Positions 2,667-39,939 of a stretch of 40,679 bases of DNA are shown here, one piece after another. This DNA is from an uncultured Eubacteriales bacterium (GTDB lineage Bacteria > Bacillota > Clostridia > Oscillospirales > Oscillospiraceae). Every line of letters begins with the position of its first letter. Within the stretch, counting starts at the first letter, position 1. Both the position numbers and the translations under genes were made by a program. Under the pieces are notes generated by a model. The model did not search any database and had not been told where the DNA came from. It worked only from the letters and a program-made list of their open reading frames with translations. The DNA lies in NCBI GenBank assembly GCA_900317375.1, contig ONGJ01000032.1, positions 1 to 40,679 of the forward strand. The letters are read 5' to 3'.

Positions 2667-4850
2667 TTACAGCACCTGGTACTTTACCAGGGCGGCAAAT
2701 TTGCCGCCGCGGGCCATCAGTTCATCGTAGGTGCCCTCCTCGGCGATCCGCCCTCCGCTGAGGAGGACGATGCGGTCGCAGTCACGGATCGTGGAGAGGC
2801 GGTGCGCAATTACGATGCGGGTGCAGTTCAGGCTGTCGAGGGCGTCGGTGACCTTTTTCTGTGTCACGTTGTCCAGCGCGGAGGTTGCTTCGTCCAGGAT
2901 GAGGATGGAAGGCTTCTGCGCAATAACGCGTGCGATCAGCAGGCGCTGTTTCTGCCCGCCCGAGATGGCGACGGCATCATCGGAGAGAATCGTCTGCATG
3001 CCCAGGGGCATGGCGCGGATGTCATCCGCCAGCCCGGCAGCCTCCGCCGCCGCCCAGGCCTCTTCCTCGGTAAGGTTGGGCCGTGAGATGGCAATGTTTG
3101 TAAAAACGTTGCCGGAAAAGATGCGGCCCTGCTGCAGGACGACGCCGATCTGGCGGCGGACGGCAGCCGTATCGAGGTGGCGCAGATCTTCGCCGTCGTA
3201 ATAGACAGCACCGGTCTCAGGCTCCTCAAAGCCGAGGAGCAGACGCACCAGCGTGCTCTTCCCGGAGCCGGATTCGCCCACGACAGCGAGATACTCGCCG
3301 GGTTTCACCTGCAGTTCCAGCCGGTCCAGCACCGGCCGCGTGCTTTTGGCATAGCGGAAGGTGACCTCGTTGAGGGAGATCGCGCCGCTGAGCTTGCCGG
3401 GATCCCGGCCGGCGGACGAGATCTCGGGGATCTCATTCAGAATCGGCTCGAGCAGATGGAGGATGGGTCGGATAGCGGCCACCTGGGAGCCGAGCGTGCT
3501 CAGCTGGAGAATGGCAGCCGAGCTCATGCTGTAGGCGGAAAAGAAATAGATGAAGAGGTCGTCGCTCAGCCCCGTCTGCAGAGCCCGCAGGAAGAGGAGC
3601 GCCAGGCCGAAAACCGTCGTGGCAGGCATCAGCGCGTTCTGAATCCGGATGAACGCCGGCGGATGGAACTCGGCATCCGCCTGCAGCCGATAGGCCTCCA
3701 TAAACCGGGCCAGCGCCCTGTTTTCGGCGCAGGCGGTTTTCACCTCGCCGATGCCTCTGAGTGTATCCAGGGCCCGTCCGTTTGTGGCCATCTGCCCCTC
3801 GATGCGGTCCATGGCGTTGCGCATCTGGCCGATGACGCCGAGAACCTGGAGCACAAGCTGGGTCAGAAGCACCGCGAGAGCCGGGGCAACCATCGCAGGC
3901 GCCGCAGTCTGAAGTTCAAAGACATACACAAGAGAGAGCAGCGCCGCCAGGCCCGTCTGAAAGAAGAGCGTGCAGAGCACCGTGCAGAGCGGATCCACCA
4001 GCGTCAGACTGCCATAGATGTCGGCAGTCTTATTGATTCGGAAGAAATCCACCGGCAGGTCAAGCACGCGCGCAAACAGCGAGCTCTGGAGAAACAGCGA
4101 CATTTTCTGGCTCACCCGCGCCACGGTCCGGGCCTGCACCACCGAAAAGAGGTAGCGGGCGATGGCGCAGCCGAGCAGGAAGATCAGCAGAGAAAAGATC
4201 ATCTTCTCATGTCCCGACGGGATGACAAGCGTCATCATCCACTTGCAGGAGATCGGGTAAAAGATTCCAAGCAGGGTCATGGCCAGCGCTGAGAGCGCAA
4301 TCATCACCGCCTCGCCCCGGGACACACAGCTTTTCATATAGAGAAGAAGGTCCCCCAGGCTCAGCCTGCGCTGCGGCACGGCGCTGTAATACAGCACCGC
4401 CTCTCTCTCCACCCGCCTGGCAGTCTTCCCTTCCATGACCAGTATCTCACCTGTGGAGCGGTCACTGCAGGAATAGCGGCCAAAGCTGCCGGGCAGCAGC
4501 GCCGCCGTCACCCCGCTGTCCAGTCTGCACAGATAGGGCCCGAAGGCATCCTTTTCCCAGCCGGGCTCAAGGATGCAGACACGCGACATGATTCCGTTTT
4601 TGCGCAGAAGGGCCTCCACATAGTTCTCATTCCCGACCCGATCCGGTTGGAAATCCGGGGTCGGGATTTCAAAATAACCACAGATCTCCCGCAGCGCAAA
4701 AGCACGGTCCTGAGACCGGTCGCTGCTCTTTTCCCGTGCCTCCGGCCGTCCCGGGTCCGTAACCCCCAGAAGTTTTCCCTCGGCGTTTGCAAGGCGCTCG
4801 CGATCGGCCGCTTCGCGTTCGCGGAGCCTTTTTTCCCAGTTCACGTTCAC
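2667..4850 (-). CDS. NHLM-type RiPP exporter, ABC permease/ATP-binding protein without peptidase
   Basis: One of two ABC half-transporters expected to export the modified Nif11-leader peptide. About 170 N-terminal residues precede the membrane part and show no C39 peptidase motif, which fits the NHLM 'ATP-binding protein' type rather than the 'peptidase/ATP-binding' type. Six hydrophobic segments follow (from about ALSALAMTLLGIFYPI). The C-terminal ATPase has Walker A GESGSGKST, signature ISGGQKQR, Walker B ILILDEATSALD and the switch IAHRLST. Translation starts at a GTG after a GGGAGG site. The gene begins 13 nt after the stop of the peptidase-bearing partner. It is the last gene of the minus-strand operon, next to a strong terminator. 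Function is by family; the cargo is inferred from context. Confidence 0.88.
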   Translation of the reverse strand: MNVNWEKRLREREAADRERLANAEGKLLGVTDPGRPEAREKSSDRSQDRAFALREICGYFEIPTPDFQPDRVGNENYVEALLRKNGIMSRVCILEPGWEKDAFGPYLCRLDSGVTAALLPGSFGRYSCSDRSTGEILVMEGKTARRVEREAVLYYSAVPQRRLSLGDLLLYMKSCVSRGEAVMIALSALAMTLLGIFYPISCKWMMTLVIPSGHEKMIFSLLIFLLGCAIARYLFSVVQARTVARVSQKMSLFLQSSLFARVLDLPVDFFRINKTADIYGSLTLVDPLCTVLCTLFFQTGLAALLSLVYVFELQTAAPAMVAPALAVLLTQLVLQVLGVIGQMRNAMDRIEGQMATNGRALDTLRGIGEVKTACAENRALARFMEAYRLQADAEFHPPAFIRIQNALMPATTVFGLALLFLRALQTGLSDDLFIYFFSAYSMSSAAILQLSTLGSQVAAIRPILHLLEPILNEIPEISSAGRDPGKLSGAISLNEVTFRYAKSTRPVLDRLELQVKPGEYLAVVGESGSGKSTLVRLLLGFEEPETGAVYYDGEDLRHLDTAAVRRQIGVVLQQGRIFSGNVFTNIAISRPNLTEEEAWAAAEAAGLADDIRAMPLGMQTILSDDAVAISGGQKQRLLIARVIAQKPSILILDEATSALDNVTQKKVTDALDSLNCTRIVIAHRLSTIRDCDRIVLLSGGRIAEEGTYDELMARGGKFAALVKYQVL

Positions 4851-4863
4851 AGCAGGCCTCCCT

Positions 4864-7014
4864 TCACTGAGACGACACCAGGGTATAATACTTTCCCCGG
4901 AGCTTCATCAGTTCGTCGTGGGTACCCTGTTCCGCGATCTTTCCGTTGTCCAGCACCAGAATGCTGTCGCAGTCCCGCACCGTTGAGAGCCTGTGTGCCA
5001 CAATGACCGCCGTCAGCTTTCGTGCCTTGATGTTTTCCATGATCACATGCTCGGTCTTCGCGTCCAGGGCCGAGGTCGCCTCGTCCAGGATCAGCACCTT
5101 CGGGTTCCGTGCCAAGGCCCGCGCAATCGTGATGCGCTGGCACTGCCCGCCCGAAAAGTTTCTGCCCCCCGAGCGGACCACATAGTCATACCCGCCCGGA
5201 AGCATCAGGATATCGTCATGGATGCAGGCCTCACGCGCAGCCTGCACGACCGCCGTGCTCGAGAGCTTCGTGTCCCACATGCGGATGTTGTTGGAAACGG
5301 TATCCTCGAACAGCGTGCTCTCCTGGCTCACAATCGCCACGGCATCGGTAAACAGCGTCTTCGGAATCGAAGCGTGCGGCCGTCCGTCAAAAAGCACCTC
5401 TCCCGACCAGGGCAAAACCGTCCCTGTCAGAAGCTTTGCCACCGTGCTCTTTCCGGAGCCGGATGCGCCCACGACAGCAATCCGCTGGCCGGGCTGTACG
5501 GTAAAGCTGAAATCGTCCAGCAGGGGCGGCGCGACCCGGGAATAGCCGAAGGTGACATGCTCGAACGCAATCCCGCCGGCCAGGGGCTGAATCTCTTCCT
5601 CTTCCGGCATGGTCCTGACCGGGAATGCCTCGTCCTCGGCATAGTTCATGACATCCTCCACCTTCTGGATGGAGGTTGCAAGCTCGCGCGTGTTTTTGCT
5701 CACCTGAGACAGGTCCTGCGCCGGCGCCGTCAGCTTTTGAATCAGCGTCTGCAGCACAAGAATCAGACCTACCGTTGTGTAACCGTGGATGATGGACCAG
5801 GCCGCCACAGACAGCACCAGCGCATTCGTCAGGTCCAGCATGAAGGTCGCAAGGCCGGTCAGCCATACCGTTATGCTGTTCTCCCTTGTCCGGCCTGCGT
5901 TCACGTCCGCCTGCTGTCCGGCCCAGCGTGAGAAGTAGCCGTTGGCAACGCCGGAGGATTTGATCGTCTCGATCATGTCGATGCCCGAGATCATGGCAGC
6001 ATCCATACGCATCTGGCTGTTCATCCGCCGCTGCTGGGACTGCAGGGTAAAGCGGGCCAGGAACCAGGTCGTGAGGATATTGCCGGCCAGCGCGAAGGCC
6101 CCCAGAAAAGCCGCCACCGGGCTCAGACTGAACAGCGCCCCAAAATAGATGAGCACCATCACCAGCTGAATCGCCACGGGCGTAATCTTTCGTACCAGGA
6201 GCTCGGCAATCGTTGAGTTCATCGTCAGGCGTGAGATCAGATCCCCCACCGAGCGCTGCTGGTAAAACTCCGTCGGCAGATTCAGAAGGTGTCTGAAAAA
6301 GCCTGTATTCGACCGCATCGCCATATTCCCCTGAATCCGGTAGATATGCATCTCGCGCAGAATGTCGGATACCAGCTCCAGCACGCCGAGCAGCAGAAGC
6401 GTCAGGAAAAACTGCTTCTCCCATTCCTGTTTCGAGTTCAGCATCACATCGGTGAAGATTCGCTGATACACCGGTGTCATCAGTCCGATCAGGGCCACCG
6501 CCAGCGCATCCAGCGCCAGAAACACCAGCCCGGAACGGTACTGTGCCGCCTTGGACCGCAGATAGCCGCCTACCGTAGGCATTTTCCCATCCCGCACGAA
6601 GTTATCGCCGGGTCGAAACTCCAGCACGATGCCCGTAAAGCTTCGGTTGAACTCCTCCATGCTGACAGTGATCTCTCCGAGGCCCGGGTCATTGAGATAG
6701 GCCTTGTTTTTCCCGAAGCCGCGAAGCACCACAAAGTGTGCCATGTTCCAGTGGATGATGCAGGGGATGTGCGCCTTTGTCATCACGCTCTCCACAGACC
6801 AGCGATATCCCTCCGCCACGAGGCCGTAGTTTTCCGCCGCCGTCATCAGATTCGAGGCTTTCGACCCGTCGCGGGAGACACCGCAGTCCCTCCGCACCTG
6901 CTCCAGGGGCACATATTTGCCATGATAGGCAAGAATCATCGCCAGAGACGCCGCACCGCACTCCACATATTCCATCTGCATGATCAGCGGCACTTTGACA
7001 TGCGAATATTTCAT
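4864..7014 (-). CDS. NHLM-type RiPP exporter with N-terminal C39 leader peptidase
   Basis: A peptidase-containing ABC transporter that should cleave the precursor after its double-glycine site and export the core. The N-terminal C39 domain (residues 1-135) has the catalytic triad C19 (VECGAASL), H93 (AHFVVL) and D109 (LNDPG). Six membrane segments occupy about residues 165-440. The ATPase has Walker A GASGSGKST, signature FSGGQCQR, Walker B VLILDEATSALD and IVAHRLST. Length (716 residues) fits the family. The ATG follows GGAGG. It lies 18 nt after the HlyD-like gene and 13 nt before the second ABC gene, so these are one operon. The partner substrate, a Nif11-type precursor with a GG site, is encoded at the head of the same operon. 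Confidence 0.92.
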   Translation of the reverse strand: MKYSHVKVPLIMQMEYVECGAASLAMILAYHGKYVPLEQVRRDCGVSRDGSKASNLMTAAENYGLVAEGYRWSVESVMTKAHIPCIIHWNMAHFVVLRGFGKNKAYLNDPGLGEITVSMEEFNRSFTGIVLEFRPGDNFVRDGKMPTVGGYLRSKAAQYRSGLVFLALDALAVALIGLMTPVYQRIFTDVMLNSKQEWEKQFFLTLLLLGVLELVSDILREMHIYRIQGNMAMRSNTGFFRHLLNLPTEFYQQRSVGDLISRLTMNSTIAELLVRKITPVAIQLVMVLIYFGALFSLSPVAAFLGAFALAGNILTTWFLARFTLQSQQRRMNSQMRMDAAMISGIDMIETIKSSGVANGYFSRWAGQQADVNAGRTRENSITVWLTGLATFMLDLTNALVLSVAAWSIIHGYTTVGLILVLQTLIQKLTAPAQDLSQVSKNTRELATSIQKVEDVMNYAEDEAFPVRTMPEEEEIQPLAGGIAFEHVTFGYSRVAPPLLDDFSFTVQPGQRIAVVGASGSGKSTVAKLLTGTVLPWSGEVLFDGRPHASIPKTLFTDAVAIVSQESTLFEDTVSNNIRMWDTKLSSTAVVQAAREACIHDDILMLPGGYDYVVRSGGRNFSGGQCQRITIARALARNPKVLILDEATSALDAKTEHVIMENIKARKLTAVIVAHRLSTVRDCDSILVLDNGKIAEQGTHDELMKLRGKYYTLVSSQ

Positions 7015-7032
7015 CGTCGCAGCCTCCGTGCC

Positions 7033-7557
7033 TCAGGGATTGACCAGCAGCATGATCGGCTGCACGTTATCCACCGTAATCACAGCATCCAACAGATCGG
7101 CCGCATCGAGTGATCCATCGGTCTTGGCATATAAATAGTAATTATAATCGGATGCAGAAACCTCTTCGAGCAGCCAGTCGTCGTTAATGATCTCGGATAG
7201 TTCACCCTGCGACATCGGCGTACTTGACACCTCGATAATCTTGCCCTGCAGGGCCTCGCCGTTCGGCCGTGTCACCCGCACGGAATCCCCCACTTCGATC
7301 TTATACTTCTGCATCTGCTGCGGCGAAACGAAAAGATAGCAGGTCGGTCCGTAATCCGGGCAGATACCCCTGCAGGAAACAGAGATCGGCAGCGTGCCCG
7401 CAAAGGACCACACCAGAAACGACAGCAGAAGGATCAGCACGGCCACCAGCGTCAGCCAGGGCATCATCCGTGCCGTATTGACATAGGGCCCGATCTTGTC
7501 CTGCTGACTCAGCTGGTCCATACTCTCCCGGCGAAACAGATTTTCGGTTGGAGCCAT
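7033..7557 (-). CDS. Short HlyD/NHLM-type secretion adaptor
   Basis: A 174-residue protein with a cytoplasmic start, one membrane segment (about residues 33-54, WLTLVAVLILLLSFLVWSF) and an extracytoplasmic domain. The opening LFRRESMDQLSQ and the following membrane helix resemble NHLM secretion proteins of the HlyD family. The usual long coiled-coil hairpin is absent. The protein goes straight from the membrane exit (PISVSCRGIC) into a barrel-like part (GDSVRVTRPNGEALQGKIIEV). It is less than half the length I expect for this family. No frame break is visible, so it looks naturally short. The ATG follows AAGGAG. It lies between the radical SAM gene and the peptidase-ABC gene, which supports an export role. 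Confidence 0.7.
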   Translation of the reverse strand: MAPTENLFRRESMDQLSQQDKIGPYVNTARMMPWLTLVAVLILLLSFLVWSFAGTLPISVSCRGICPDYGPTCYLFVSPQQMQKYKIEVGDSVRVTRPNGEALQGKIIEVSSTPMSQGELSEIINDDWLLEEVSASDYNYYLYAKTDGSLDAADLLDAVITVDNVQPIMLLVNP

Positions 7558-7595
7558 AGGAAAACTCCTTTCATCGGTTGATGTGTTGGTTCGGA

Positions 7596-9530
7596 TTACA
7601 GGATTCCCGTCGGCAGCGCCAGCGAGATATAACGGCCGCCCAGCCGGGCAATCACATTCAGAGCGGTGAGCTCTTCTGCGGCGGCCAAGATTTCGGCCTC
7701 GGGGGCAGTGTCCCTGAGGGCGCCCAGCAGCTGCCTCTCTGTTTTCGCCTCATCACAGGCATCAAACACAGCCCGCTTCAGGCCGGTCAGAAGCATAAAA
7801 GGACGGACCATACAGGGCCGGGAATCGATCAGCAGCAGCCCCGCCTCGGTTTCGGCTGCCTCCAGGGCACGTTTCTCTCCCGAGGAGGCAATGCGTTTCC
7901 ACTCATAAACCGCTGTGTAAAGCCTGTCATACAGGGGGTGCATTCGCTCGCGTTCGTCTGAGAAAGCGCCTCCCGTCAGGCGGTAGTACATGCACAGGTT
8001 CTCAACCCGGTCATCGTTGTCCCCGTATATATACCGGTTCATCTCCTCCGGCTCCAGCTCAAGCCCGTAGGCCTCCGGTGCCTCCAGATAGCGCGAGTAG
8101 CGCTGGAACATGATCGGAAACGCCCCGGTCGGCGGCTGGAAATGCACGATCTTCGGGATCAGCGCCGTCATCTCTTCATAATCCTCTGCTTTTTCACCGG
8201 GGATGCCGATCAGCAGGTTCCAGGTCAGGCCGAGATGGTGCCGGCGGCAGTTTTTGAGGAATGCCACGTGTGCTGCAGCGTTGTTCCCCTTGTTCATCAG
8301 GTCCAGCAGGTGGTCGTTCAGGCTTTCAATACCCGGCTGCACGATCCGAAAGCCCGCCTGCACCAGCTTTTCTATGTCCCGCTCCTTCAGGTTTGTCTTG
8401 ACCTCGCCCACCAGGGTCAGCTTTCGCCCGCTCTCTGCCAGCATGGGCAGAAGATGCTCCATCGCATCAAAGCTCAGAATATTGTCTGTCAGCTGGATCA
8501 GGCTGTTCCCGTACCGCTCGCTCAGCCCGAGGATTTCATCCCGCAGCCGCTCGGCCGTCTTGTAGCGGTAGACATTTTTCCGTCCGTTCAGCCCGCAGAA
8601 GCTGCAGGGGTGCTTCTGCCCCCACCAGCAGCCGCGGGAGCCCTCCAGATAGATCGCATAATTCGCCCCGGAAAGATAGAGAAGGTCTTTGTTTTCCTCG
8701 ACAAACTGCCGGCCGAACATCGGCACGCCATAGGAGCCGGCCTGCTCCCGTTCCCACTCGGCAACATAGTCGGAATAGTCCGGCCAGCAGACCTGATTCA
8801 TATCCTCTGTCATTCGATGCGGGATCGGATCGGGAACCGGTTCGCCGCGGCGGACCACCCCATACGGCATGGGTCCGGACTCCAGCCCCATGGCAATGCG
8901 GCAGACCTGTGCAAAGACCTCGTCCCCCTCGCCGAAGAAGACATAGTCGACGCTGGGATAATGGCGCAGGATGGCCGCCCCCGCCTCACCGGAGACATTG
9001 GTTCCGCCGAGTATCGAAGCGATGCCGGGCGCAATCTCCTTCACCCTTTTGATCACAGCCAGCGCGCCGTTGACCTGAGAAAAAATAGAGCTGACTGCCA
9101 GCACCCCCGGCCTTCTCCGGGCAATCTCAAGAGCGAGTTCGTCGACACACAGGCGCGCCTTTTCCCGGGCGTAGATTAGCAGAGAGAGGACTTCATCAAA
9201 AGAATACACCGGATACTCCCGGCAGAGGAAGGCCGCGAAGGTCTCGTCGGAGCAGGTGTTTTCAACGTCGGTCATATGCGCAAAGAGATACTCTTCCAGA
9301 CCCGAGCTGTACGGAAAAGCATCGATCTTCCGGCAGGCATCCATCCCCAGCATGTGGGACAGACGGAACATGGGATAAAGCACCTGCGCCCGCATACCGG
9401 CCTCATTCAGGCACTGGCGGAAGAGGGAAAGCGCGATGGACGGACGCGGGGGAAAATCATAGGGCGGTGAAAGCAGAACCACGTCGAGCTGTTCTGCGTC
9501 TCGGACCGGGTCAACAATCTCGGGTTTCAT
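7596..9530 (-). CDS. B12-binding radical SAM RiPP maturase (C-methyltransferase-type family)
   Basis: A 644-residue enzyme of the group annotated as RiPP maturation radical SAM protein 1. The N-terminal half looks like a cobalamin-binding Rossmann domain (LLSPPYDFPPRPSIALSLF at about 14-32; LGGTNVSGEAG, then VDYVFFGEGDEVF). The iron-sulfur motif is the unusual C-x7-C-x2-C of this family: C301, C309 and C312 in GCWWGQKHPCSFCGLNG. The middle has VGEVKTNLKERDIEKL and FRIVQPGIESLND, as in other B12 radical SAM proteins. Family members are proposed C-methyltransferases on precursor peptides. The actual reaction here is not shown by sequence. It has a strong GAGGAGG site before ATG, follows the precursor gene and an attenuating terminator, and precedes the adaptor by 38 nt. 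Confidence 0.87.
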   Translation of the reverse strand: MKPEIVDPVRDAEQLDVVLLSPPYDFPPRPSIALSLFRQCLNEAGMRAQVLYPMFRLSHMLGMDACRKIDAFPYSSGLEEYLFAHMTDVENTCSDETFAAFLCREYPVYSFDEVLSLLIYAREKARLCVDELALEIARRRPGVLAVSSIFSQVNGALAVIKRVKEIAPGIASILGGTNVSGEAGAAILRHYPSVDYVFFGEGDEVFAQVCRIAMGLESGPMPYGVVRRGEPVPDPIPHRMTEDMNQVCWPDYSDYVAEWEREQAGSYGVPMFGRQFVEENKDLLYLSGANYAIYLEGSRGCWWGQKHPCSFCGLNGRKNVYRYKTAERLRDEILGLSERYGNSLIQLTDNILSFDAMEHLLPMLAESGRKLTLVGEVKTNLKERDIEKLVQAGFRIVQPGIESLNDHLLDLMNKGNNAAAHVAFLKNCRRHHLGLTWNLLIGIPGEKAEDYEEMTALIPKIVHFQPPTGAFPIMFQRYSRYLEAPEAYGLELEPEEMNRYIYGDNDDRVENLCMYYRLTGGAFSDERERMHPLYDRLYTAVYEWKRIASSGEKRALEAAETEAGLLLIDSRPCMVRPFMLLTGLKRAVFDACDEAKTERQLLGALRDTAPEAEILAAAEELTALNVIARLGGRYISLALPTGIL

Positions 9531-9556
9531 AAAGCCTCCTCAGGGACCGGAGCGGA

Positions 9557-9590
9557 AATAAAAAACCGGCAGCCGGAAAACGGCTGCCGG
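9557..9590 (-). terminator. Rho-independent terminator between precursor and radical SAM genes
   Basis: A perfect 10-bp stem (CCGGCAGCCG / CGGCTGCCGG) with a 5-nt loop is followed on the minus strand by TTTTTTATTTCC. It lies downstream of the precursor stop and upstream of the radical SAM ribosome site. It probably lets most transcripts end after the peptide gene while some read through. Confidence 0.85.
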
Positions 9591-9614
9591 CAGATGCGGA
9601 CAGGTGAATGAATA

Positions 9615-9642
9615 TGCGGCGGACAGCGACCTGTCCGCCGCA
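9615..9642 (-). other. Perfect 12-bp hairpin directly after the precursor gene
   Basis: TGCGGCGGACAG and CTGTCCGCCGCA form a perfect 12-bp stem with a 4-nt loop, 11 nt after the precursor stop codon. There is no U-tract behind it, so it is more likely a 3' stabiliser or processing structure than a terminator. The true terminator follows about 25 nt later. Confidence 0.6.
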
Positions 9643-9653
9643 CAGCAATTGCA

Positions 9654-9938
9654 TCAGCAGGTTGCGGCCGAGGAAATGGAGATTGTGACGCCCGCAGCCG
9701 GAACGACCGTGGCGATGGTGGGCGTAGTGCCGCCGGCCACCTCGTCAAGCTGGGCCTTGTCAAGCTTGCCCTCTGCGGCGTTGGCGTTGACGAAAGCCTT
9801 GAGTTCGTCAACAGTGGCAGTGATGCCGAAATCCTTCAGAACCTCTTCAACCGGCTTGCCGCCCTTGGCAGCCTCGGCAACCTTGGCCTGCAGTTCGGGA
9901 TCTTTTGCGACTTTTTCATAAAACTCTTTAATCGTCAT
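9654..9938 (-). CDS. Nif11-type leader RiPP precursor peptide
   Basis: A 94-residue precursor. The leader (residues 1-70) is a Nif11-type leader: it starts MTIKEFYEKVAKDPELQAKV, is acidic and Ala/Lys-rich, and ends LDEVAGG, a double-glycine site matched to the C39 peptidase in the same operon. The predicted core is 24 residues. It begins TTPTIATVVPAAGV, ends TISISSAATC, is rich in Thr, Ser, Val and Ile, and has a single C-terminal Cys. This gives nine hydroxyl residues but at most one thioether ring. A good AAAGGGG site precedes the ATG, and a consensus promoter lies about 90 nt upstream. Only one precursor copy is visible. Product structure is unknown. Confidence 0.9.
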   Translation of the reverse strand: MTIKEFYEKVAKDPELQAKVAEAAKGGKPVEEVLKDFGITATVDELKAFVNANAAEGKLDKAQLDEVAGGTTPTIATVVPAAGVTISISSAATC

Positions 9939-10029
9939 GACAGTTTCCCCTTTCTTTTTTCTTTGTCTTATTTAATATCCGTTTTCAACGATTCGGTCCG
10001 CGGAAAGCAGAACCTGAATGGATAGCTGA

Positions 10030-10058
10030 ATTATAATACCCGGACGGCCTGTTGTCAA
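10030..10058 (-). promoter_or_regulatory. Consensus sigma-A promoter for the precursor operon
   Basis: On the minus strand, TTGACA (10058-10053) and TATAAT (10035-10030) are separated by exactly 17 nt. Both hexamers match consensus fully. The expected start is near 10022, giving a leader of about 85 nt before the precursor ATG. Confidence 0.9.
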
Positions 10059-10079
10059 GAATCATTCCTGTGCGTTTTG

Positions 10080-10099
10080 TTATGCAAAGATATGCATAA
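10080..10099. promoter_or_regulatory. Inverted repeat between divergent promoters, candidate operator
   Basis: TTATGCA-N6-TGCATAA is a perfect 7-bp inverted repeat. It lies between the two outward-facing -35 boxes (10053-10058 and 10106-10111), a position suited to a regulator controlling both arms. No regulator gene is visible in the RiPP locus, so a factor encoded elsewhere would be needed. Confidence 0.5.
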
Positions 10100-10105
10100 A
10101 GTATA

Positions 10106-10134
10106 TTGCAGAGATTTTGCCGGAATGCTATACT
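10106..10134 (+). promoter_or_regulatory. Sigma-A-type promoter for the reductase-LanM operon
   Basis: TTGCAG (10106-10111), a 17-nt spacer and TATACT (10129-10134) face the plus-strand genes. The expected start is near 10141, about 36 nt before the reductase ATG. It is a weaker match than the opposing precursor promoter. Confidence 0.75.
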
Positions 10135-10176
10135 GGCGCAGGCGGAAACATCGCTGCCGGGACGGAGGGATGCCCA

Positions 10177-10935
10177 ATGAAAATACTCGCCATTGTTTTT
10201 ACTCAGCGCCGAAAGGACAAACCGGCAAGCCTGCAGGTGACAGAGGAACTCTGCAGACTGGTTTCAGAGCGCGGAGGCAGGGACGTGGAAACCGAAATCG
10301 TCACGATGAGCGAGCTGCCGGTGCTGGCCTGCGCCGGATGCAAGACCTGCTTTCGCGAAGGCAGATGCCCGGCAGACAAAGCCGACGGCATGGCTGAGCT
10401 GCGGAAAAAGGTGCGGGAATGCGACGCGCTGATCGCGGCCACGCCGGTCTATATGTGCATGGTCAGCGGATGGTGCAAGAATTTTCTGGACCGCTGTGCA
10501 CGCTGGTGTCATGTCTTCGAACTGCTGGGGAAGCCCTGTCTGGTTCTCAGTGTTACTTCGGCAACAGGCGGCGAGCGGACAGCAGATTATCTGTCAGAGT
10601 GTCTGGAGGTCATGGGTGCCGCGGTTTCTGCCAGGCTTGCATTTCAAAAGCTGGGAGAGGGCGTGCTGATCGGGACGGAGAATGCAAAAGCATGCATGGA
10701 GAACGCCGCAGCATCTCTGTTCGACGCTATCCGTGCGCCGGAAGACTATCTGTCCGAACGGGCAGAGACGCAGTTTCAGAGTCTGCAGCGCACCTATCGC
10801 ACGCTGGAGACAGTCTGGCTGCTGAGCGGGCAGAAATGCAGCAGCGAGGTGGATACCTTCCGCAGCCGCGGACTGATGACCTGCGCCTCTCTTCGTGAGG
10901 CGCTGCAGACCGGAGAGGCAGGGGGAAAGCCGTGA
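10177..10935 (+). CDS. Flavodoxin-fold NAD(P)H-dependent FMN reductase family protein in RiPP locus
   Basis: A 252-residue cytoplasmic protein of the FMN_red/flavodoxin-like type. It starts MKILAIVFTQRR, a first beta strand and phosphate loop, followed by CAGCKTCFREGRCPADKADGM, where cysteines precede the PADKAD segment as in this family. IAATPVYMCMVSGWCKNFLDR is the typical flavin-side motif. The ATG at 10177 is preferred over an upstream ATG at 10117 because GGAGGG sits just before it and the fold starts there. Its stop overlaps the LanM start (GTGATGG), so they are coupled. It could reduce dehydroamino acids or supply electrons to the radical SAM enzyme; both roles are inferred only from context. 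Confidence 0.78.
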   Translation: MKILAIVFTQRRKDKPASLQVTEELCRLVSERGGRDVETEIVTMSELPVLACAGCKTCFREGRCPADKADGMAELRKKVRECDALIAATPVYMCMVSGWCKNFLDRCARWCHVFELLGKPCLVLSVTSATGGERTADYLSECLEVMGAAVSARLAFQKLGEGVLIGTENAKACMENAAASLFDAIRAPEDYLSERAETQFQSLQRTYRTLETVWLLSGQKCSSEVDTFRSRGLMTCASLREALQTGEAGGKP

Positions 10936-12155
10936 TGGAGAAAGCCGTAGAAAAAACGGAAGAAAACAGAGAGAGGAAAAGTGCGGAGCAGGGGCCTGAA
11001 GATCTGTATGCCTTTCTCCTCCCTTACGCAGAGGAGGAGATACGGACAATCAGGGCGCAGACCGGCGTTCCCATGCGGGAGGCGGCCGTGCTGGGAAAAG
11101 GTCTCCTGTTTCAGCGGCTGAAGGATCTGACAGAGCCGACAGTACAGGCAATGCTGGAGGAGAACCTTTGCAGCATCAACCCCGCAGTCACGCTGAGCCC
11201 GCATTTTGCGTCTGAGGCAGACCGTGAAAGGGCGCTCAGGGAGACCGCAGCGCAGCTGAGGCGTCCCGAGGGCAATCCCTTTGCAAGGTACCCGCTGCTG
11301 GAGCAGGATGCCGGGCGCATCCGGGAGAACTTTCGCAGCTTTCTCATCGGCTTTCTGCATCGTCTGGATGAAAACCGGGCGCAGATTGAGCGGGGCCTGC
11401 TTCAGGGGCGGTCGATGGGGGCGCTTCTGTCCCTCAGCGCCTCCGGCGCCGATTCGCATCTGCACGGGCAGTGTGCCCTGCGAGTCGGGACCGAAGGCGG
11501 TGTATTCTATTACAAACCGCGCGACAGCCGCTTAGACCGTCTGTACAGGGAGATCACGGAACGGTTCTGCCCGGACGACACCCGCGCTCCGCTGGCAGTC
11601 TGCGGAGAGGGCTTCGGCTTTATCGAATGCATGAAGACGGCACCGGTTCAGAGCCGGGAAGAGGTGTCTCAATACTATGAGCATTTCGGTGCGCTGACAG
11701 CGCTGTTCCGTTTCCTCGGCACCTCGGATATGCATTATGAAAACATTCTCGCCTGCGGCGTCTATCCCGCGGCAATCGACATGGAGACGCTGTTTACCCC
11801 TGCATCCGATCCCTATCAGGGCTGCGAAATCGCATCCGTTGACGAAATGAACCCGGTCTGGAGAGATCTTTTCTTCTCGACCCAGTCGACACTGGTGCTG
11901 CCGATGATGCTGCAGGGGAAAGCGCAGATCAGCCCGCTGCTGCGCGGGAACGCCGAAACTGCCAGGTGTCTTCCGGTTCTCGACGGGAAGCCGATCTCGA
12001 TCTACGGTTTTGAGGAGTCGTACATCGGCGGTTTTTCGCGGATGTATGACCGGCTTCTGCGGTGCGCTGACGCTGCACGAGATGCACTCGCCTGCGGGAT
12101 GCGCGTCGAAAGATGCACGGGAGCGCATCCTGGCCGACCTGAACAGGCATTTTGA
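10935..12155 (+). pseudogene. LanM-type lanthipeptide synthetase, dehydratase half (frame-broken)
   Basis: The N-terminal part of a class II lanthipeptide synthetase (DUF4135 dehydratase), which phosphorylates and eliminates Ser/Thr in precursor peptides. Motifs present are GADSHLHGQ then FYYKPRDSRLD near residues 172-205, GEGFGFIECM, TSDMHYENILACGVYPAAIDMETLF near 265-290, and ESYIGGFSRMY before the break. From about 12060 the frame loses LanM similarity and stops at 12155 after an unrelated tail. The C-terminal half continues in the next frame (12010-13620). About 20-35 expected residues (the region with the conserved R-x-T-x2-Y and HP segment) are missing or scrambled at the junction, so this looks like a small out-of-frame deletion. 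The start is ATG 10935, with GTG 10932 possible. Confidence 0.78.
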
Positions 12156-13620
12156 AAAAGAGCCGGCATATACGCCGGCAGTCCGGTGGGAACGGGCATG
12201 TCTGGAAGAGGGGGATATCCCTTATTTTTCCTTCCGGGCCGGACAGAGCGGCCTTTACGGGGATCCGTACGGAGGCATTCTGCTCAGCGGCTTTTTTCGA
12301 ATGACCGCCATCGAGCGCTGTCTCCTGACGCTGGAGCGTTCCGGGCCGGAGGAAAAGCGCTTTGAACTGGATTATCTGAGGAGGCGGTTCCGGCAGGGCC
12401 CCGATTCTGCAAAAGAGATCGGCAGAGAGCAGCCGGAACGGGCGCCGGAAGGAAGCCCCGATCCCCTCTCCGTGCAGGACGCGCGGGCGGAGGCCGTGAA
12501 GATTCTCGGTGAGATGGACAGGATGGCGCTTCGGCTGACAGACGGAAAGCGCATCCTGCTGAGTGCCGACAAGCATCTGGTACCGAGCCATCATCCGAAC
12601 TTTGAGCGGGGTCTGCCCGGGATGAGTCTGTTTTTCGATCTCGTACAGAGATGCCACGGCCTGCACTGCGCAGAGGCGGCCACACGGCTTCTCGGCGATA
12701 CGGAGGAAGACCTCCTTCGGTCGCGGAGGACATACCGGCAGATGACAGAGGCCTTCCGGGGCATCCTGCATCCCGGCCTCCGCAAAGGCGTGGGCGGCCT
12801 GCTGCTGTCCCCCTGTATGGACAGGGACGGCATTGCCGATGTGCTTGACAGCCTGATGCTGATGACACGGTCGTATGAAGAAGAGGACGCAAGTCTGTAT
12901 TCCGGAATCGGCGGCCTTCTAGCGGGCTGCCTCGCAGCTGCTGCCCGCATCGGGGACGGAGAGGAAAAAGAGATGCTGTCCCATCTGATCAGGCGGCTCA
13001 GCCGTCTGCTGATTCCGCGCGTGGAGAGCGCCGGGCAGGTCTCGGGCCTCGGCCGCGGGATGGCCGGAACCGGACTCGCCCTGGTGCAGGCCTGGCAGCA
13101 CACCGGGGACAGGGAGCTTTTGGAAGCAGCTGAAAAGGCCTTTTCGCTGGAGAGCGGGCAGTACCGAGAGCTTCTGCGCGGCTGGCCGGACTACGGGAAG
13201 TCCCCGCTGCCGGTCATTGTCGGGGAGAGCCTGGAGGCCGGCGCGCCGGGAATCGCCCTGGCAGCTGTCCTGAGCGAGCAGGCGGTTCCGGCTGCCGGAG
13301 AGCTGGCGGATCGGGCGCTTTCATGCACGCTCGCACTGCCCTTCCAGGAGACGGACGATCTGGCACTTGGAAATGCAGGCATCGCGCTTGCCCTGACGGA
13401 AGCCGCCTGCCGGCGCAGCGACCCCGGGCTCCTGAGCGCCGCAGGAGAAAGACTGGCGCAGTCAGCGCAGCGTGCCAAGCAGGACGGCGGATACCGATCG
13501 GTCCCGCTCAGGCTGCGCAACATTCCGGATCCTTCCTTCTGGCGCGGCATCGCCGGAATCGGGTATGCCATGCTGAAATACGCGGAAGCCTGCGAGAAAG
13601 TACAAAACCCGCTTCCTTAA
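12010..13620 (+). pseudogene. LanM-type synthetase, end of dehydratase plus LanC-like cyclase half lacking zinc ligands
   Basis: Continuation of the LanM gene in the +1 frame. Similarity starts near 12085 with KDARERILADL, then GDIPYFSF, the usual dehydratase end. The rest is a LanC-like barrel: YSGIGGLLAG, GLGRGMAGTGLALV, EAGAPGIALA, LALGNAGIALAL and WRGIAGIGYAML. In active LanM proteins the matching motifs read sGxxHG, WCHGAPGIAL and CHGNAG. Here the His is Arg, the first Cys-His pair reads EA, and the second reads AL. All three zinc ligands and the active-site His are therefore absent while the glycine framework is kept. No convincing independent start exists (the open frame begins at TTG), so it is most likely the 3' part of one broken gene. 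A terminator follows. Confidence 0.78.
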
Positions 13621-15593: not shown

Positions 15594-16277
15594 TTATTTC
15601 TTTTCCTCGTCAGGACCGAAGCGCTTGGTATAATAGTCGATCTCGTAGGCAGCCTCCATCATGGTGTACTCTGCCTCCAGCGCCCAGGCATAGGCCATCT
15701 CGTAGCAGCTGTTTGCATAGTCCAGCAGGTCCAGAATCCAATCTTCCTGAGCAGCCTTGTCGAGCTCTTCTTTGCGAACGGCGATCTTCTCCTTGGCGGC
15801 ATTGACCTTCATCTCGGTGCGGAGCTTGGCATTGCTGCACTTGGCATCGCGGCGCTCGCGGATCATGCGGGCATTCTCTTCGGCAACGGCGAAGTCACCG
15901 GCAGTCTGCTTCTGAATCGCATCAACACCGGTCTTCTCATTGGCAATGCTCTCGGCATCGGCCTTGTCCAGCGTCATGGCAGCCTTGGCCTTGGCAGCGC
16001 CCGCTTCCAGCTTTGCCTCAGCGCTGTCCATCCCGGCACTGATCTTATCAGCCTGTGTATCCAGTTTGGCATCCAGTTCGTCCGCCTTCGCGTCGAGCTT
16101 GGTATCAACACTCGCATTGAAAGCGTCGATCTTGGCATCGAGCGCGTCGATGTCAGCGGCGATCTCTTCGAGCTTCTTCTCACGGGCAATCTTGCGGGCG
16201 TCAATGGAGGCATCCAGTTTGGCTTTCAGTTCATCCAGTTTACGACCCTGAGCTGCATATTTTTCTTCGAATGTCAT
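15594..16277 (-). CDS. Alanine/lysine-rich coiled-coil protein of unknown function
   Basis: A 227-residue, highly charged protein without membrane segment or signal peptide. Residues about 5-120 are almost continuous heptad-type helix (KLDELKAKLDASIDARK, then repeated DAKLDT/DALDAK units), followed by a second helical block and an aromatic C-terminal part (CYEMAYAWALEAEYTMMEAAY). The repeated KLD-A units suggest internal duplication. The start at 16277 is chosen because GAGGAAGG lies just before it; an upstream in-frame start at 16307 lacks such a site. I do not recognise the family. A structural or scaffold role is possible but unproven. Confidence 0.72.
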   Translation of the reverse strand: MTFEEKYAAQGRKLDELKAKLDASIDARKIAREKKLEEIAADIDALDAKIDAFNASVDTKLDAKADELDAKLDTQADKISAGMDSAEAKLEAGAAKAKAAMTLDKADAESIANEKTGVDAIQKQTAGDFAVAEENARMIRERRDAKCSNAKLRTEMKVNAAKEKIAVRKEELDKAAQEDWILDLLDYANSCYEMAYAWALEAEYTMMEAAYEIDYYTKRFGPDEEKK

Positions 16278-16412
16278 AGATAGAACCTTCCTCTCGTTAT
16301 GAATCATGCTTCTGCACCATCACAGAACGCTTTATTTATAATAAGCCTTTTCCCCGATATTGTCAAGCCGATCAGCATGATCCGGACAGGGTATTCAGGC
16401 AATCCGGAGACG

Positions 16413-17080: not shown

Positions 17081-22697
<5,617 letters not shown>

Positions 22698-22755
22698 GCT
22701 TTCCTCCCTCTCCAAACGATTGGACGGAATATTAACGCTTAAACTGGTAACTTAT

Positions 22756-25025: not shown

Positions 25026-25586
25026 TCAGCCGCGGCTTATCTTTTCCAAGGTGTCGGAGAGGACGGTTTTTCGCAGCTCGGTAAGCCAGTCGGAGAACGC
25101 GACGGTGTCAAAGGCGTAGGTCTGATTGAGGGAGTACTCGTTTTCGGACCAGGTGTCGAGGGGCGATTCGTTGTGCTGGATCAGCGCCTCCAGCTTGTCC
25201 AGCGCTTTATAGAGCTTCGCCTCAGGGGTCTCCTGGCGGTCCATCTCGTTATAGAGGGCCATCAGGTCGTTACTGAGCTCGGGAGGCAGGGACCGGACCC
25301 ATGTGTGGAGGAGAGAATCCTCGGTGTCACGGTCGCTGTCGGTTTTGCGGAAGGTCGGAATGTCGCCGGTAAAGCACTCGCCCAGATCGTGGATCAGGCA
25401 CATGTCCGTCACCCGGTCGATGTTGAGCCCGGGAAACTCCCGGCGCAGGAGCATGGCCATCAGGGAGACGCGCCAGCTGTGTTCGGCAACGCTCTCTGTG
25501 CGGCGCTTTGACGTGGTGCAGTGGCGCGGGGTGTCCTTCAGGCGCTCGGCCACATGCAGGATTTCAAGGTATTCACGTGCGGTCAT
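25026..25586 (-). CDS. HD-domain phosphohydrolase, YfbR-like (HD_3)
   Basis: A 186-residue cytoplasmic HD-superfamily protein of the type that includes YfbR-like 5'-nucleotidases. Metal-binding residues are visible at H36 (VAEHSW), H66-D67 (LIHDLGE, with E70) and the later ALDKLEALIQH. Length and order fit the HD_3 group. The substrate is probably a nucleotide, but specificity cannot be read. It is the last gene of the long minus-strand operon, 14 nt after the ABC exporter gene, with GGGGAGG before its ATG. A link to the exporter function is not obvious; it may be a passenger. Confidence 0.85.
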   Translation of the reverse strand: MTAREYLEILHVAERLKDTPRHCTTSKRRTESVAEHSWRVSLMAMLLRREFPGLNIDRVTDMCLIHDLGECFTGDIPTFRKTDSDRDTEDSLLHTWVRSLPPELSNDLMALYNEMDRQETPEAKLYKALDKLEALIQHNESPLDTWSENEYSLNQTYAFDTVAFSDWLTELRKTVLSDTLEKISRG

Positions 25587-25600
25587 TGAACATTCCTCCC

Positions 25601-27529
25601 CTATTCGAGTTCGAAGGCGCCGGTGTAGAGGCGGTAGTAGGTACCGCGCTCAGCGATGAGCTGGGCATGGCTGCCGCGCTCGATGATGCGGCCGTGGTCA
25701 AGGACCATGATGACATCGGCGTCGCGCACGGTGGAAAGCCGGTGCGCAATGACGAAGACCGTGCGGCCTTCCATCAGCTTGTCCATGCCTTTCTGAACAA
25801 TGGCCTCGGTGTGCGTGTCGATGGAGCTGGTCGCCTCGTCGAGGATCATGACCGGCGGGTCGGCGACCGCCGCACGGGCAATGGCAATCAGCTGGCGCTG
25901 GCCCTGGGAAAGGTTGGCGCCGTTGTTATGCAGCTCGGTCTGATAGCCATGGGGCAGGCGCATGATGAAATCATCGGCACCGGCTAGGCGGGCGGCACGG
26001 ATGCACTCGTCATCCGTGGCATCGAGGCGGCCGTAGCGGATGTTCTCGAGGACGGTGTCGGTGAAGAGATGGGTCTCCTGCAGGACCAGGCCGAGAGAAC
26101 GGCGCAGGTCGGCCTTTTTGATCTTATTGACGTTGATGCCGTCGTAGCGGATCTTGCCGTCTGCGATGTCATAGAAGCGGTTGATGAGGTTCGTGATGGT
26201 GGTCTTGCCGGCACCCGTGGCGCCGACGAAGGCGACCTTCTGGCCAGGTTCGGCATAGACCGAAATGTCATGGAGAACCGGCTTGCCCTCTTCATAGGCA
26301 AAGTCGACATCGACCATGCGCACGTCACCGCGCAGCGGCGTATAGGTGACGCTGCCGTCGGCAGTATGGGGATGGCGCCAGGCCCAGCGGCCGGTACGCT
26401 CGGCAGTCTCGGTGAGAACACCGTTCTCCTCTCTGGCGTTGACGAGGGTGACATAGCCCTCGTCGGTTTCGGGTTCTTCGTCAATGAGGGAGAAGACGCG
26501 GGCGGCGCCCGCACCGGCCATGACGATGGCGTTGAACTGCTGGGAGAGGTTGTTCACGTTGCCGGTAAACTGCTTGGCCATGTTCAGGAAGGGCACCAGA
26601 ATGGAAATGCTGAAGGGCAGGCCGGAAATGCTGATATTCTGCAGGCCGGAAAGCAGGAAAAGACCGCCGGCAAGTGCCAGGACAACATAAAGAAGATTGC
26701 CGATGTTGGCCATGATGGGGCCGAGGAGGCTGGCATAGGTGTTGGCCTTGCGGCTGACCTCATAAAGCTCGTTATTGGCAGCGTTGAAATCGGCGATGCT
26801 GGCCGCTTCATGGTTGAAGACCTTGATGACCTTCTGGCCGCTCATCAGCTCCTCCGCCAGGCCCTCCATGGCGCCGGTGGCCTGCTGCTGGCGCATAAAG
26901 TAACGGGCGCTGCCGCCGCCGACCACCTTGGTGGTATAGAACATGGCGACAATGCCAAGGACGAGGACAAGGGTCAGCCAGAGGCTGAACCAGAGCATGA
27001 CGGCGAAGACGGCCAGGACGACGGCGCCGGACTGGATCAGATTCGGAAGAGCCTGTGACACCAGCTGGCGGAGGGTATCGATGTCGTTGGTGTAATGCGA
27101 CATGATATCGCCGTGTGCGTGGGTATCGAAGTAGCGGAGAGGCAGCCCCTGCATGCCGTCAAACATCTCGCGGCGGAGCTTGTCCAGAAAGCCCTGGGTC
27201 ATATAGGCCATGATCTGGGTATAAACGGTCACGGCAATCAGGGACAGCAGGTAGAGAGCGGCAAGAATGACGAGATAGCGAACGATCTCGGGGCGTGCGG
27301 CGGCCCAGTCGCGGGTGAGATAGAGGTTCTCGACAACCGCCAGGACCCTCTGTACGAAGACGGAGGGAATGGCCGAAACAACGGCGGAGAAGAGAATGCA
27401 GAAAACCGTCAGCGGGGCCAGACGCGGATAATATGAGAAGAGCTTTCGGATCACACGGCCGAGAGAAGAAAAGTTCTTTTTCAGGTCTGCAGAGGACCCG
27501 GGAGCGGAACGCCTGCGTGTTTCAGACAT
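25601..27529 (-). CDS. ABC exporter half-transporter with canonical ATPase site
   Basis: A 642-residue type IV ABC exporter half, with membrane domain (about residues 40-330) and ATPase. Walker A GATGAGKTT near 433, signature LSQGQRQ, Walker B MILDEATSSID near 560 with the catalytic Glu, and VIAHRLST. An insertion of about 40 residues (AREENGVLTETAERTGRW region) separates the domains. The ATG at 27529 is preferred over the upstream in-frame 27562 because GGAGG precedes it and it gives an 8-nt overlap (ATGTCTGA) with the partner gene. Together with that partner it should form a heterodimer of the BmrCD/TM287-288 type. Substrate unknown; drugs, lipids or peptides are possible. Confidence 0.9.
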   Translation of the reverse strand: MSETRRRSAPGSSADLKKNFSSLGRVIRKLFSYYPRLAPLTVFCILFSAVVSAIPSVFVQRVLAVVENLYLTRDWAAARPEIVRYLVILAALYLLSLIAVTVYTQIMAYMTQGFLDKLRREMFDGMQGLPLRYFDTHAHGDIMSHYTNDIDTLRQLVSQALPNLIQSGAVVLAVFAVMLWFSLWLTLVLVLGIVAMFYTTKVVGGGSARYFMRQQQATGAMEGLAEELMSGQKVIKVFNHEAASIADFNAANNELYEVSRKANTYASLLGPIMANIGNLLYVVLALAGGLFLLSGLQNISISGLPFSISILVPFLNMAKQFTGNVNNLSQQFNAIVMAGAGAARVFSLIDEEPETDEGYVTLVNAREENGVLTETAERTGRWAWRHPHTADGSVTYTPLRGDVRMVDVDFAYEEGKPVLHDISVYAEPGQKVAFVGATGAGKTTITNLINRFYDIADGKIRYDGINVNKIKKADLRRSLGLVLQETHLFTDTVLENIRYGRLDATDDECIRAARLAGADDFIMRLPHGYQTELHNNGANLSQGQRQLIAIARAAVADPPVMILDEATSSIDTHTEAIVQKGMDKLMEGRTVFVIAHRLSTVRDADVIMVLDHGRIIERGSHAQLIAERGTYYRLYTGAFELE

Positions 27530-29264: not shown

Positions 29265-29267
29265 TTT

Positions 29268-33852: not shown

Positions 33853-33853
33853 G

Positions 33854-37673: not shown

Positions 37674-37685
37674 GTCCGGCCATCC

Positions 37686-39845: not shown

Positions 39846-39898
39846 GACAACCTCTCTTTCCCGCAGGCATCCTGTAAACCCACTTTCCCTATCATAAT

Positions 39899-39927: not shown

Positions 39928-39939
39928 CAGTTTCCCTTA

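What the first reader, a model, noticed from the sequence alone, without database searches (positions are those of the whole stretch)
2667..13620. Divergent Nif11-leader RiPP locus that combines a B12 radical SAM maturase, a LanM-type enzyme, a flavodoxin-fold reductase and NHLM export
The set joins a Nif11-type precursor, a C-x7-C-x2-C B12 radical SAM enzyme, a LanM whose cyclase is degenerate, a reductase and a two-ABC NHLM exporter. Proteusin pathways (for example polytheonamide) also pair a LanM-like dehydratase without cyclase activity with radical SAM enzymes. The Thr/Val/Ile-rich core starting with Thr fits that logic. The exact combination with a flavodoxin-fold reductase is not one I know.
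Basis: partly seen in the sequence, partly recalled or inferred. Interest (0 to 1): 0.85.

Follow-up and report, generated by a model that had tools for sequence, protein, structure and literature searches.

The report
Clostridial peptide cluster with zinc-less LanM
This is a recurring bacterial gene cluster that probably makes a small secreted peptide and then dehydrates, reduces and methylates it; its ring-forming enzyme domain has lost its zinc site, and in this assembly the dehydrating enzyme's gene reads as broken, possibly through an assembly error.

Summary
The cluster is real: at 2667-13620 an NHLM-type exporter, a B12 radical SAM C-methyltransferase (TIGR03975, C-x7-C-x2-C), a Nif11 precursor (core TTPTIATVVPAAGVTISISSAATC), an FMN reductase and a LanM, around a divergent promoter. 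All seven genes recur in the same order in three MAG loci (rSAM 77-78% identical); two more distant loci (48-51%) keep most. Another 80-nt loss breaks an unrelated flavoprotein in the same contig, so an assembly artefact is about as likely as a real mutation. The reductase is not a new partner: in 7 of 7 plasmid places opened (of 17 records) its homologue lies in a lanthipeptide gene run (LanJ-like). The distinctive feature is LanMs whose cyclase domains lack all zinc ligands; two relatives add a separate LanC that keeps them, the window type none found. Zinc-less LanM-like proteins are already known in Clostridium. Best reading: polytheonamide-like logic, D-residues made by dehydration and reduction, plus C-methylation. 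The chemistry is inferred. New variant of a known kind.

The parts
2667..4850 (-). ABC exporter permease/ATPase (NHLM_ABC2-like, 727 aa)
   Evidence: TIGR03797 617.1 bits (cut-off 709.4), PF00005; 75-76% identical in L023-L025
4864..7014 (-). ABC exporter with N-terminal C39 peptidase that would cut after the GG of the leader (716 aa)
   Evidence: TIGR03796 813 bits (cut-off 853.3), PF03412 115.2 bits; 77-79% identical in L023-L025
7033..7557 (-). Short HlyD/NHLM-HlyD-like membrane fusion protein (174 aa)
   Evidence: weak TIGR03794 match, 30.6 bits of cut-off 156.2; 174 codons also in L023-L025
7596..9530 (-). B12-binding radical SAM C-methyltransferase, Cx7Cx2C (644 aa)
   Evidence: TIGR03975 497.7 bits over cut-off, PF04055, PF02310
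9565..9591 (-). Terminator-like hairpin with T run between precursor and rSAM (possible attenuator)
   Evidence: 1 found; shuffles mean 1.1, so the pattern count alone is not unusual; fold z -4.8; a similar hairpin is read in L023-L025
9654..9938 (-). Nif11-leader precursor, 94 aa, core TTPTIATVVPAAGVTISISSAATC after VAGG
   Evidence: TIGR03798 33.8 bits; alignment A2, 53-83% identical to four relatives
10030..10058 (-). Sigma-70-like promoter TTGACA-17-TATAAT before the precursor
   Evidence: 12 of 12 consensus positions; TTGACA/TATAAT with 17 between also read at the same place in L023-L025
10177..10935 (+). FMN reductase, LanJB-like, with CX2CX2CX5C (252 aa; ORF opens at 10117)
   Evidence: PF03358 77.1 bits; A4; top fold match SP1951 with FMN, 2oys/1sqs (model pLDDT 70.5, below 50 over residues 51-63 with the first three of the four Cys)
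10932..12155 (+). LanM, 5' part (dehydratase kinase residues); homology ends near 12057, the rest of the ORF is out of frame
   Evidence: PF13575 153 bits, TIGR03897 142.4 bits; aligns with CylM active-site stretches
12010..13620 (+). LanM, 3' part (LanC-like domain without zinc ligands); homology begins near 12062
   Evidence: TIGR03897 140.9 bits, PF05147 47.5 bits; zinc-site alignment
12050..12067 (+). Site of the net 80-nt loss against L023, L024 and L025; frame break in LanM (exact placement ambiguous)

Best explanation
A Nif11-leader RiPP cluster of polytheonamide-like logic. Proposed order: the LanM phosphorylates Thr/Ser of the core and eliminates phosphate, giving Dhb/Dha (in intact relatives; the window copy is broken as assembled); the FMN reductase, a LanJ-like enzyme, reduces some Dhb/Dha to D-Abu/D-Ala; the B12 radical SAM enzyme adds methyl groups at unactivated carbons of Val/Ile/Thr; the C39 transporter cuts after GG and exports the peptide; an N-terminal Dhb would hydrolyse to a 2-oxobutyryl cap. 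The fused cyclase domain has lost its zinc site, so the product is largely linear; where a separate LanC stands in the cluster (L026, L027) one C-terminal Ser20-Cys24 ring is likely. Shown: gene content, order, recurrence, promoter, loss of zinc ligands, loss of 80 nt in the assembly. Inferred: every chemical step, their order, target residues, and any role of the product.
For: Gene families; same set and order in L023-L025, partial in L026 and L027. The positions that CylM uses for phosphorylation and elimination are kept in the five intact LanMs, with Ser in place of CylM Thr512 (roles from passages of PMC4550811). Zinc ligands and catalytic His absent in all five plus the window half, present in four plasmid LanMs and, as Cys/Cys/Cys plus His, in the separate LanCs of L026 and L027. 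Lacticin 481 synthetase zinc-ligand mutants retain dehydration (title of a reference seen in PMC9934072). Reductase homologue in a lanthipeptide gene run in 7 of 7 places opened of 17 records, one with a lactocin-S gene. Cores conserve T1, T2, P3, T7, P10, G13, S20 and C24 in five of five aligned. PoyC/PoyF precedents.
Against: No chemistry was measured. Class III cyclases work without zinc ligands (passages of PMC10604976), so a ring may still be made. All five aligned cores keep a C-terminal Cys, which a purely linear product would not need. L027 has no reductase in the contig held (tblastn, ORFs read), so reduction is not essential to every member. The window LanM is frame-broken as assembled. 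Thr512 is Ser in the five intact LanMs, and the CylM T512A mutant does not eliminate (Ser was not tested there). TIGR03975 names the family, not the substrate residues.
Confidence: 0.55

Rival explanations
1. The window's broken LanM is an assembly artefact; the organism carries an intact LanM and a working pathway.
For: A second loss of exactly 80 nt, in an unrelated flavoprotein of the same contig (near 17549, against G015), also breaks a frame. Apart from the deletion both LanM halves stay open and show pN/pS of 0.32-0.40 against relatives, against 0.26-0.35 among intact pairs.
Against: In a comparison of G000 with G015 (56,117 bases aligned in 13 segments, about 31 kb of it outside the window by subtraction) the only 80-nt gap was the flavoprotein one; six other gaps of 40 or more bases were 43-157 nt. 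No gap over 34 nt in window 25042-39935. Reads are not available. In LanM the placement of the gap is ambiguous, and only the net size is 80.
Confidence: 0.5
2. The break is real and recent: the locus is decaying in this species and at most C-methylated or unmodified precursor is made.
For: Frame break and lost elimination segment. Relics of related genes in two genomes of the same genus: an rSAM N-terminal fragment in G059 and a LanC fragment in G015. HlyD pN/pS is higher in window pairs (0.43-0.49) than in L023 against L024/L025 (0.26-0.28).
Against: The other six cluster genes are open; the identical size of the second loss points to a technical cause.
Confidence: 0.4
3. The zinc-less LanC-like domain still closes a ring without metal, as class III enzymes do, so the product is a true lanthipeptide with a Ser20-Cys24 ring.
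For: Ser20 and Cys24 are invariant in five of five aligned cores; class III cyclases lack the zinc ligands; the C-terminal part of the L024 model is mostly confident and helical, and the weak whole model still finds LicM2, LanL and LanCL folds.
Against: The catalytic His is lost too (K, R or M); L026 and L027 keep a separate LanC with zinc-type residues, which suggests that their fused domain does not suffice.
Confidence: 0.25
4. The reductase is an iron-sulfur flavoprotein that feeds electrons to the radical SAM/B12 enzyme rather than reducing Dha/Dhb.
For: CX2CX2CX5C invariant in four of four aligned, as described for iron-sulfur flavoproteins (passage of PMC3164229).
Against: The same four-Cys form occurs in a Paraclostridium lanthipeptide cluster with no rSAM among the 12 features shown; lactocin S and Macrococcoides homologues lack it; no iron-sulfur flavoprotein is named among 27 PDB matches of the profile.
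Confidence: 0.12
5. As assembled, the 5' LanM product is a phospho-only enzyme like EmbM, making a phosphopeptide.
For: Phosphorylation-site residues stay, the elimination segment is gone; EmbM with a Nif11-type precursor phosphorylates Thr3 and Thr4 (passages of PMC9505594 and PMC9259500).
Against: The frame ends inside the dehydratase domain, which is unlikely to fold; the break may be an artefact.
Confidence: 0.04

Closest known systems
Polytheonamide-type proteusin pathways (PoyB/PoyC, PoyF)
   Same: Cx7Cx2C B12 rSAM C-methyltransferase with a LanM-like dehydratase lacking a working cyclase; Thr first in the core
   Different: Nif11 instead of nitrile-hydratase leader; no epimerase among the eight cluster ORFs; a LanJ-like reductase; PoyF lacks a cyclization domain (passage), whereas here the domain is present without zinc ligands
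LanJB-containing class II lanthipeptide clusters (annotated here: lactocin S, lichenicidin-type, mersacidin-type; in print: bicereucin)
   Same: LanM with an FMN reductase and, in four of the six LanM places opened, a peptidase-domain or other ABC exporter next to it
   Different: The four LanMs tested keep zinc ligands; precursors of other families; no rSAM named in the stretches shown (most genes are unnamed)
CA_C0082-type LanM-like proteins of Clostridium
   Same: Zinc-binding residues lost; some homologues lie in lanthipeptide clusters (passages of PMC10301443)
   Different: Those also lack dehydratase residues, are 670-728 aa and sit behind agr operons; here the 900-919-aa enzymes keep the dehydratase residues
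Phospeptin (EmbA/EmbM)
   Same: Nif11-type precursor with a LanM-like enzyme without working cyclase
   Different: EmbM only phosphorylates and its precursor has no Cys (passages); here intact relatives keep the elimination positions and the cores end in Cys
Prochlorosins and other Nif11 lanthipeptides
   Same: Nif11 leader, GG site, LanM (passages of PMC2887384)
   Different: Here one precursor beside its enzymes, zinc-less LanM, plus rSAM and reductase
Other LanM + rSAM clusters met here (L081, L091, L092, L093)
   Same: L081: Nif11 precursors, zinc-less LanMs, four-Cys reductase, exporter; L091: LanM-like gene, reductase and exporter; L092, L093: Nif11 precursors and LanM
   Different: The rSAM is of SPASM type (Pfam in L081 and L091; by tblastn likeness to it in L092 and L093); L092 and L093 keep zinc residues (CCG)

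Membership tests
Class II lanthipeptide (LanM-made) | Leader peptide with GG site and LanM nearby | tested here: met
Class II lanthipeptide (LanM-made) | Intact LanM with dehydratase residues | tested here: inconclusive
   met in five of five intact relatives, Thr512 as Ser; not met in the window as assembled
Class II lanthipeptide (LanM-made) | Zinc-binding LanC domain | tested here: not met
   ligands absent in window and five relatives
Class II lanthipeptide (LanM-made) | Thioether ring in the product | not testable with these tools
   needs mass spectrometry
Proteusin | Nitrile-hydratase-like leader | tested here: not met
   NCBIfam lists only TIGR03798 (Nif11) for the precursor at E 0.01
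Proteusin (polytheonamide type) | Cx7Cx2C B12 rSAM C-methyltransferase | tested here: met
   TIGR03975 over cut-off; motif read in sequence
Proteusin (polytheonamide type) | Radical SAM epimerase in the cluster | tested here: not met
   none among the eight cluster ORFs scanned; the rest of window and genome not tested
LanJB reductase | FMN reductase fold, coded with a lanthipeptide synthetase | tested here: met
LanJB reductase | Reduces Dha/Dhb to D-Ala/D-Abu | not testable with these tools
   biochemistry
Iron-sulfur flavoprotein | Compact motif CX2CX2CX5-7C binding a 4Fe-4S cluster | tested here: inconclusive
   motif present and invariant in four; cluster binding untested; no such protein named among 27 PDB profile matches
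NHLM exporter | TIGR03796/03797/03794 over curated cut-offs | tested here: not met
   all three below cut-off, though best family for each
Nif11 RiPP precursor | TIGR03798 over cut-off and GG site | tested here: met
   33.8 of 32.3 bits for the window; Pfam PF07862 finds the precursors of the window and of L023-L025 but not those of L026 and L027 at E 0.01, which rest on alignment A2
Phospeptin type | LanM-like enzyme lacking elimination residues | tested here: inconclusive
   missing only in the broken window copy; kept in relatives

The most novel reading that the evidence does not exclude
In Clostridia a lineage of Nif11-associated LanM enzymes has been turned into pure dehydratases by loss of the cyclase zinc site, with ring closure handed to a separate LanC in some members and dropped in others. 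In the window type this serves an epimerase-free route to D,L-alternating, C-methylated, membrane-seeking peptides: the stretch V-T-I-S-(I/V)-S, present in the window core and in L023-L025 but not in L026 or L027, would become alternating L and D residues by dehydration and reduction, a second solution to what polytheonamide makers do with a radical SAM epimerase.
Probability: 0.2. Interest if true: 0.75.

Novelty: new variant of a known kind. Interest (0 to 1): 0.5.

Why it matters
If right, D-amino acids, dehydration and unactivated C-methylation are combined by a compact set of enzymes, without an epimerase. It would show how a LanM can be reduced to a dehydratase while its cyclase is re-supplied in trans, and give a source of enzymes for peptide engineering. 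It also warns that short out-of-frame losses in MAG contigs can make a working cluster look dead.

Tried and rejected
Proteusin membership: rejected by the leader test. An unprecedented reductase: rejected by plasmid neighbourhoods and print. A separate LanC elsewhere in the genome: in G000, G454 and G456 Pfam LANC_like passes its cut-off only inside the LanM; in G455 it also rings, weakly, inside the LanM of its second cluster (L081); separate LanCs only in G457 and G458. An internal start that would make the 3' LanM half a gene of its own: judged by eye from sequence only, no ribosome site close to an in-frame ATG. Empty-site test: the cysS and flavoprotein flanks lie on one G015 contig in the window's order, but other genes stand between them there, and the AI-2E transporter is on another contig, so no clean empty site. 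Structure of LanM: mean pLDDT 51.3, only the C-terminal part usable. Separate LanC of L027 against PDB sequences: no hit; window 3' LanM half against PDB: only hits at E 0.075-0.094 to unrelated proteins. Papers on TIGR03975: 2, neither opened. SP1951 literature: nothing used; that SP1951 lies beside a pneumococcal LanM is recalled, not tested. Rhizobium plasmid hit of the rSAM: epimerase and C-methyltransferase side by side, no LanM named, not used further. Rows dropped: reductase pN/pS rows with the window are invalid (start wrong by one base) and not used, and the other reductase rows of that call cover only 151 codons; one search stopped on a zero division; one search printed nothing. In one search, alignments under 500 columns or 70% identity, or overlapping a longer one by over 30%, were dropped. 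Paper listings were capped: 20 of 58, 5 of 8, 15 of 40.
Full report
What is there. The region 2667-13620 holds two divergent gene groups. Leftward: precursor, radical SAM enzyme, short HlyD-like protein, C39 ABC transporter and second ABC transporter. Rightward: FMN reductase, then LanM, whose ORF start overlaps the reductase's stop. Family searches give Nif11 precursor (TIGR03798, 33.8 bits, cut-off 32.3), TIGR03975 (497.7, cut-off 281.85), FMN_red, C39 and LanM. The three NHLM models are the best families for the exporter proteins but stay under their cut-offs. A 12/12 promoter stands before the precursor and a terminator-like hairpin between precursor and rSAM; both are also seen when L023-L025 are read. 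The window's own taxon is not told; 'clostridial' is inferred from its nearest loci, titled Clostridiales, Ruminococcaceae and Lachnospiraceae. That RUG-named MAGs come from rumen is recalled.

The LanM is broken as assembled. The LanM match falls in two frames. Aligned to L023, L024 and L025, the window lacks a net 80 nt near 12050-12067; the lost segment holds the R-x5-[ST] stretch that stands where CylM has Arg506 and Thr512, needed for phosphate elimination (passages of PMC4550811). L023-L027 have single ORFs of 907, 919, 910, 900 and 901 aa. Both window halves keep pN/pS of 0.32-0.40 against relatives, intact pairs 0.26-0.35, so the break is recent or not real. In the same contig a flavoprotein (minus strand, near 17549) lacks exactly 80 nt against G015, again out of frame. 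Two losses of one size in one contig suggest a technical cause. Against this, a comparison of G000 with parts of G015 (56,117 bases in 13 segments, window included; about 31 kb outside it by subtraction) showed no other gap of that size. I leave artefact and real break at about even odds.

Recurrence. One scan of genome contigs gave 10 loci with rSAM relatives. In 5 of 10 (L023-L027) a Nif11 precursor and a LanM lie in the same locus; L023, L024 and L025 have all seven genes in the window's order. L026 has precursor, LanM, separate LanC, rSAM, HlyD, the start of ABC1 (contig end) and a reductase 4.3 kb upstream of the precursor; L027 has precursor, LanM, separate LanC, rSAM, HlyD and both ABC proteins but no reductase in its contig. 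The other 5 (35-36% identical; L028 and L030 are short contigs) gave no tblastn match to LanM or the precursor at 1e-3. The cluster is rare: full rSAM only in the own genome among 61 of the genus (28 of 61 had some match at 0.001, beside the own one a partial in G059 and weak rSAM-domain ones), 1 of 394 in the order at 1e-30, 1 of 200 and 1 of 299 in the families of L024 and L026 at 1e-40 and 1e-60, precursor profile 1 of 398 in the phylum at 1e-6; in each the one is the genome already known. LanM dehydratase domains were found in 5 of 250 genomes of the family, the own one included.

Cyclase. Zinc ligands and the catalytic His are missing in the window half and in all five relatives, present in the four plasmid LanMs tested, and present as GHG, CSG and CCG in the separate LanCs of L026 and L027. 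A LanM tree of 15 rows (window not included) groups eight zinc-less enzymes, L023-L027, two of L081 and the second LanM-like gene of G000 (90/92, below the tool's star), next to two CCG LanMs of the same family, L092 and L093; a ninth zinc-less one, L091, falls outside on a long branch. In a tree of 14 LanC domains the two separate LanCs pair (98/95) apart from the zinc-less domains (93/93); by BLAST they match the CCG LanM domains (87-114 bits) better than their own neighbours' (40-47 bits). This suggests that ring closure moved to a separate gene in one lineage, but class III enzymes cyclize without zinc (passages of PMC10604976), so loss of ligands is not proof of loss of function. Zinc-less LanM-like proteins, lacking dehydratase residues too, are already described in Clostridium (passages of PMC10301443).

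Reductase. tblastn found 17 plasmid records. I opened 7 places, and in all 7 the gene lies in a run with a lanthipeptide synthetase gene: Macrococcoides, Latilactobacillus (2, one with a lactocin-S gene), Paraclostridium (2, one class I), Priestia, and Staphylococcus (two genes away from LanM). PMC7268733 (passages) says FMN reductases of this kind (LanJB) are common in class II clusters and make D-residues. The AlphaFold model (pLDDT 70.5) matches SP1951 with FMN best. A CX2CX2CX5C motif is invariant in four of four aligned, as in iron-sulfur flavoproteins (PMC3164229 passage); whether it binds a cluster is untested, and lactocin S and Macrococcoides homologues lack it.

Mechanism and novelty. 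See Best explanation. PoyC methylates Ile and Val residues, and the N-terminal Thr that PoyF dehydrates (passages of PMC11285071 and PMC9505594). The window core starts TTP and is rich in T, V and I; S20 and C24 are invariant in five of five aligned cores. D-residues by dehydration and reduction would take the place of an epimerase. In print I found no account of Nif11, zinc-less LanM, LanJ and B12 rSAM together; the searches were made, in an open-licence library only, by capped listings and by passages of the papers named, so this is weak evidence of absence. Each part is known; the combination and the cyclase hand-over are a new variant.

Noticed in passing
17081-22715, minus strand, break near 17549: A large FAD/FMN-binding flavoprotein with repeated domains (named by eye, no family search) is frame-broken by a loss of exactly 80 nt against G015, the same net size as in LanM.
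   Followed up: partly
L081 (G455:C9:30000-46000): A second Nif11 cluster in the genome of L024: two Nif11-like precursors, a zinc-less LanM of 899 aa, a LanM-like protein of 651 aa, a reductase with the four-Cys motif, a SPASM radical SAM enzyme and HlyD/ABC exporter genes.
   Followed up: partly
L090:2287-4820 (G000:C152, own genome): A second, open LanM-like gene (674 aa, dehydratase residues present, no zinc ligands) behind a small ORF with a VAGG site.
   Followed up: partly
L091 (G001:C39, same genus): Another cluster: LanM-like gene of 802 aa without zinc motifs, a reductase, a SPASM radical SAM enzyme and exporter genes; no Nif11 precursor was found by tblastn.
   Followed up: partly
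L056:6165-6683 (G059) and L058:8708-8980 (G015): Relics in the same genus: an N-terminal fragment of a B12 rSAM relative, and a LanC end with CCG just before the homologue of window 15594-16307 and near the AI-2E transporter homologue.
   Followed up: partly
L024 against L025: rSAM 99.8% and reductase 98.7% (151 codons) identical, precursors one residue apart, but the LanMs only about 78% identical, as if one part had been exchanged between species.
   Followed up: no
L002 (G000:C48:12687-12854): Weak Nif11-like ORF ending LKEIAGGWDPYHYGDT, 19.5 bits, below cut-off; 4 of 14 control genomes also ring below the cut-off.
   Followed up: no
L026:1899-4937: An AMP-binding (adenylation) enzyme of about 1000 aa lies between the reductase and the precursor in this distant relative.
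   Followed up: no
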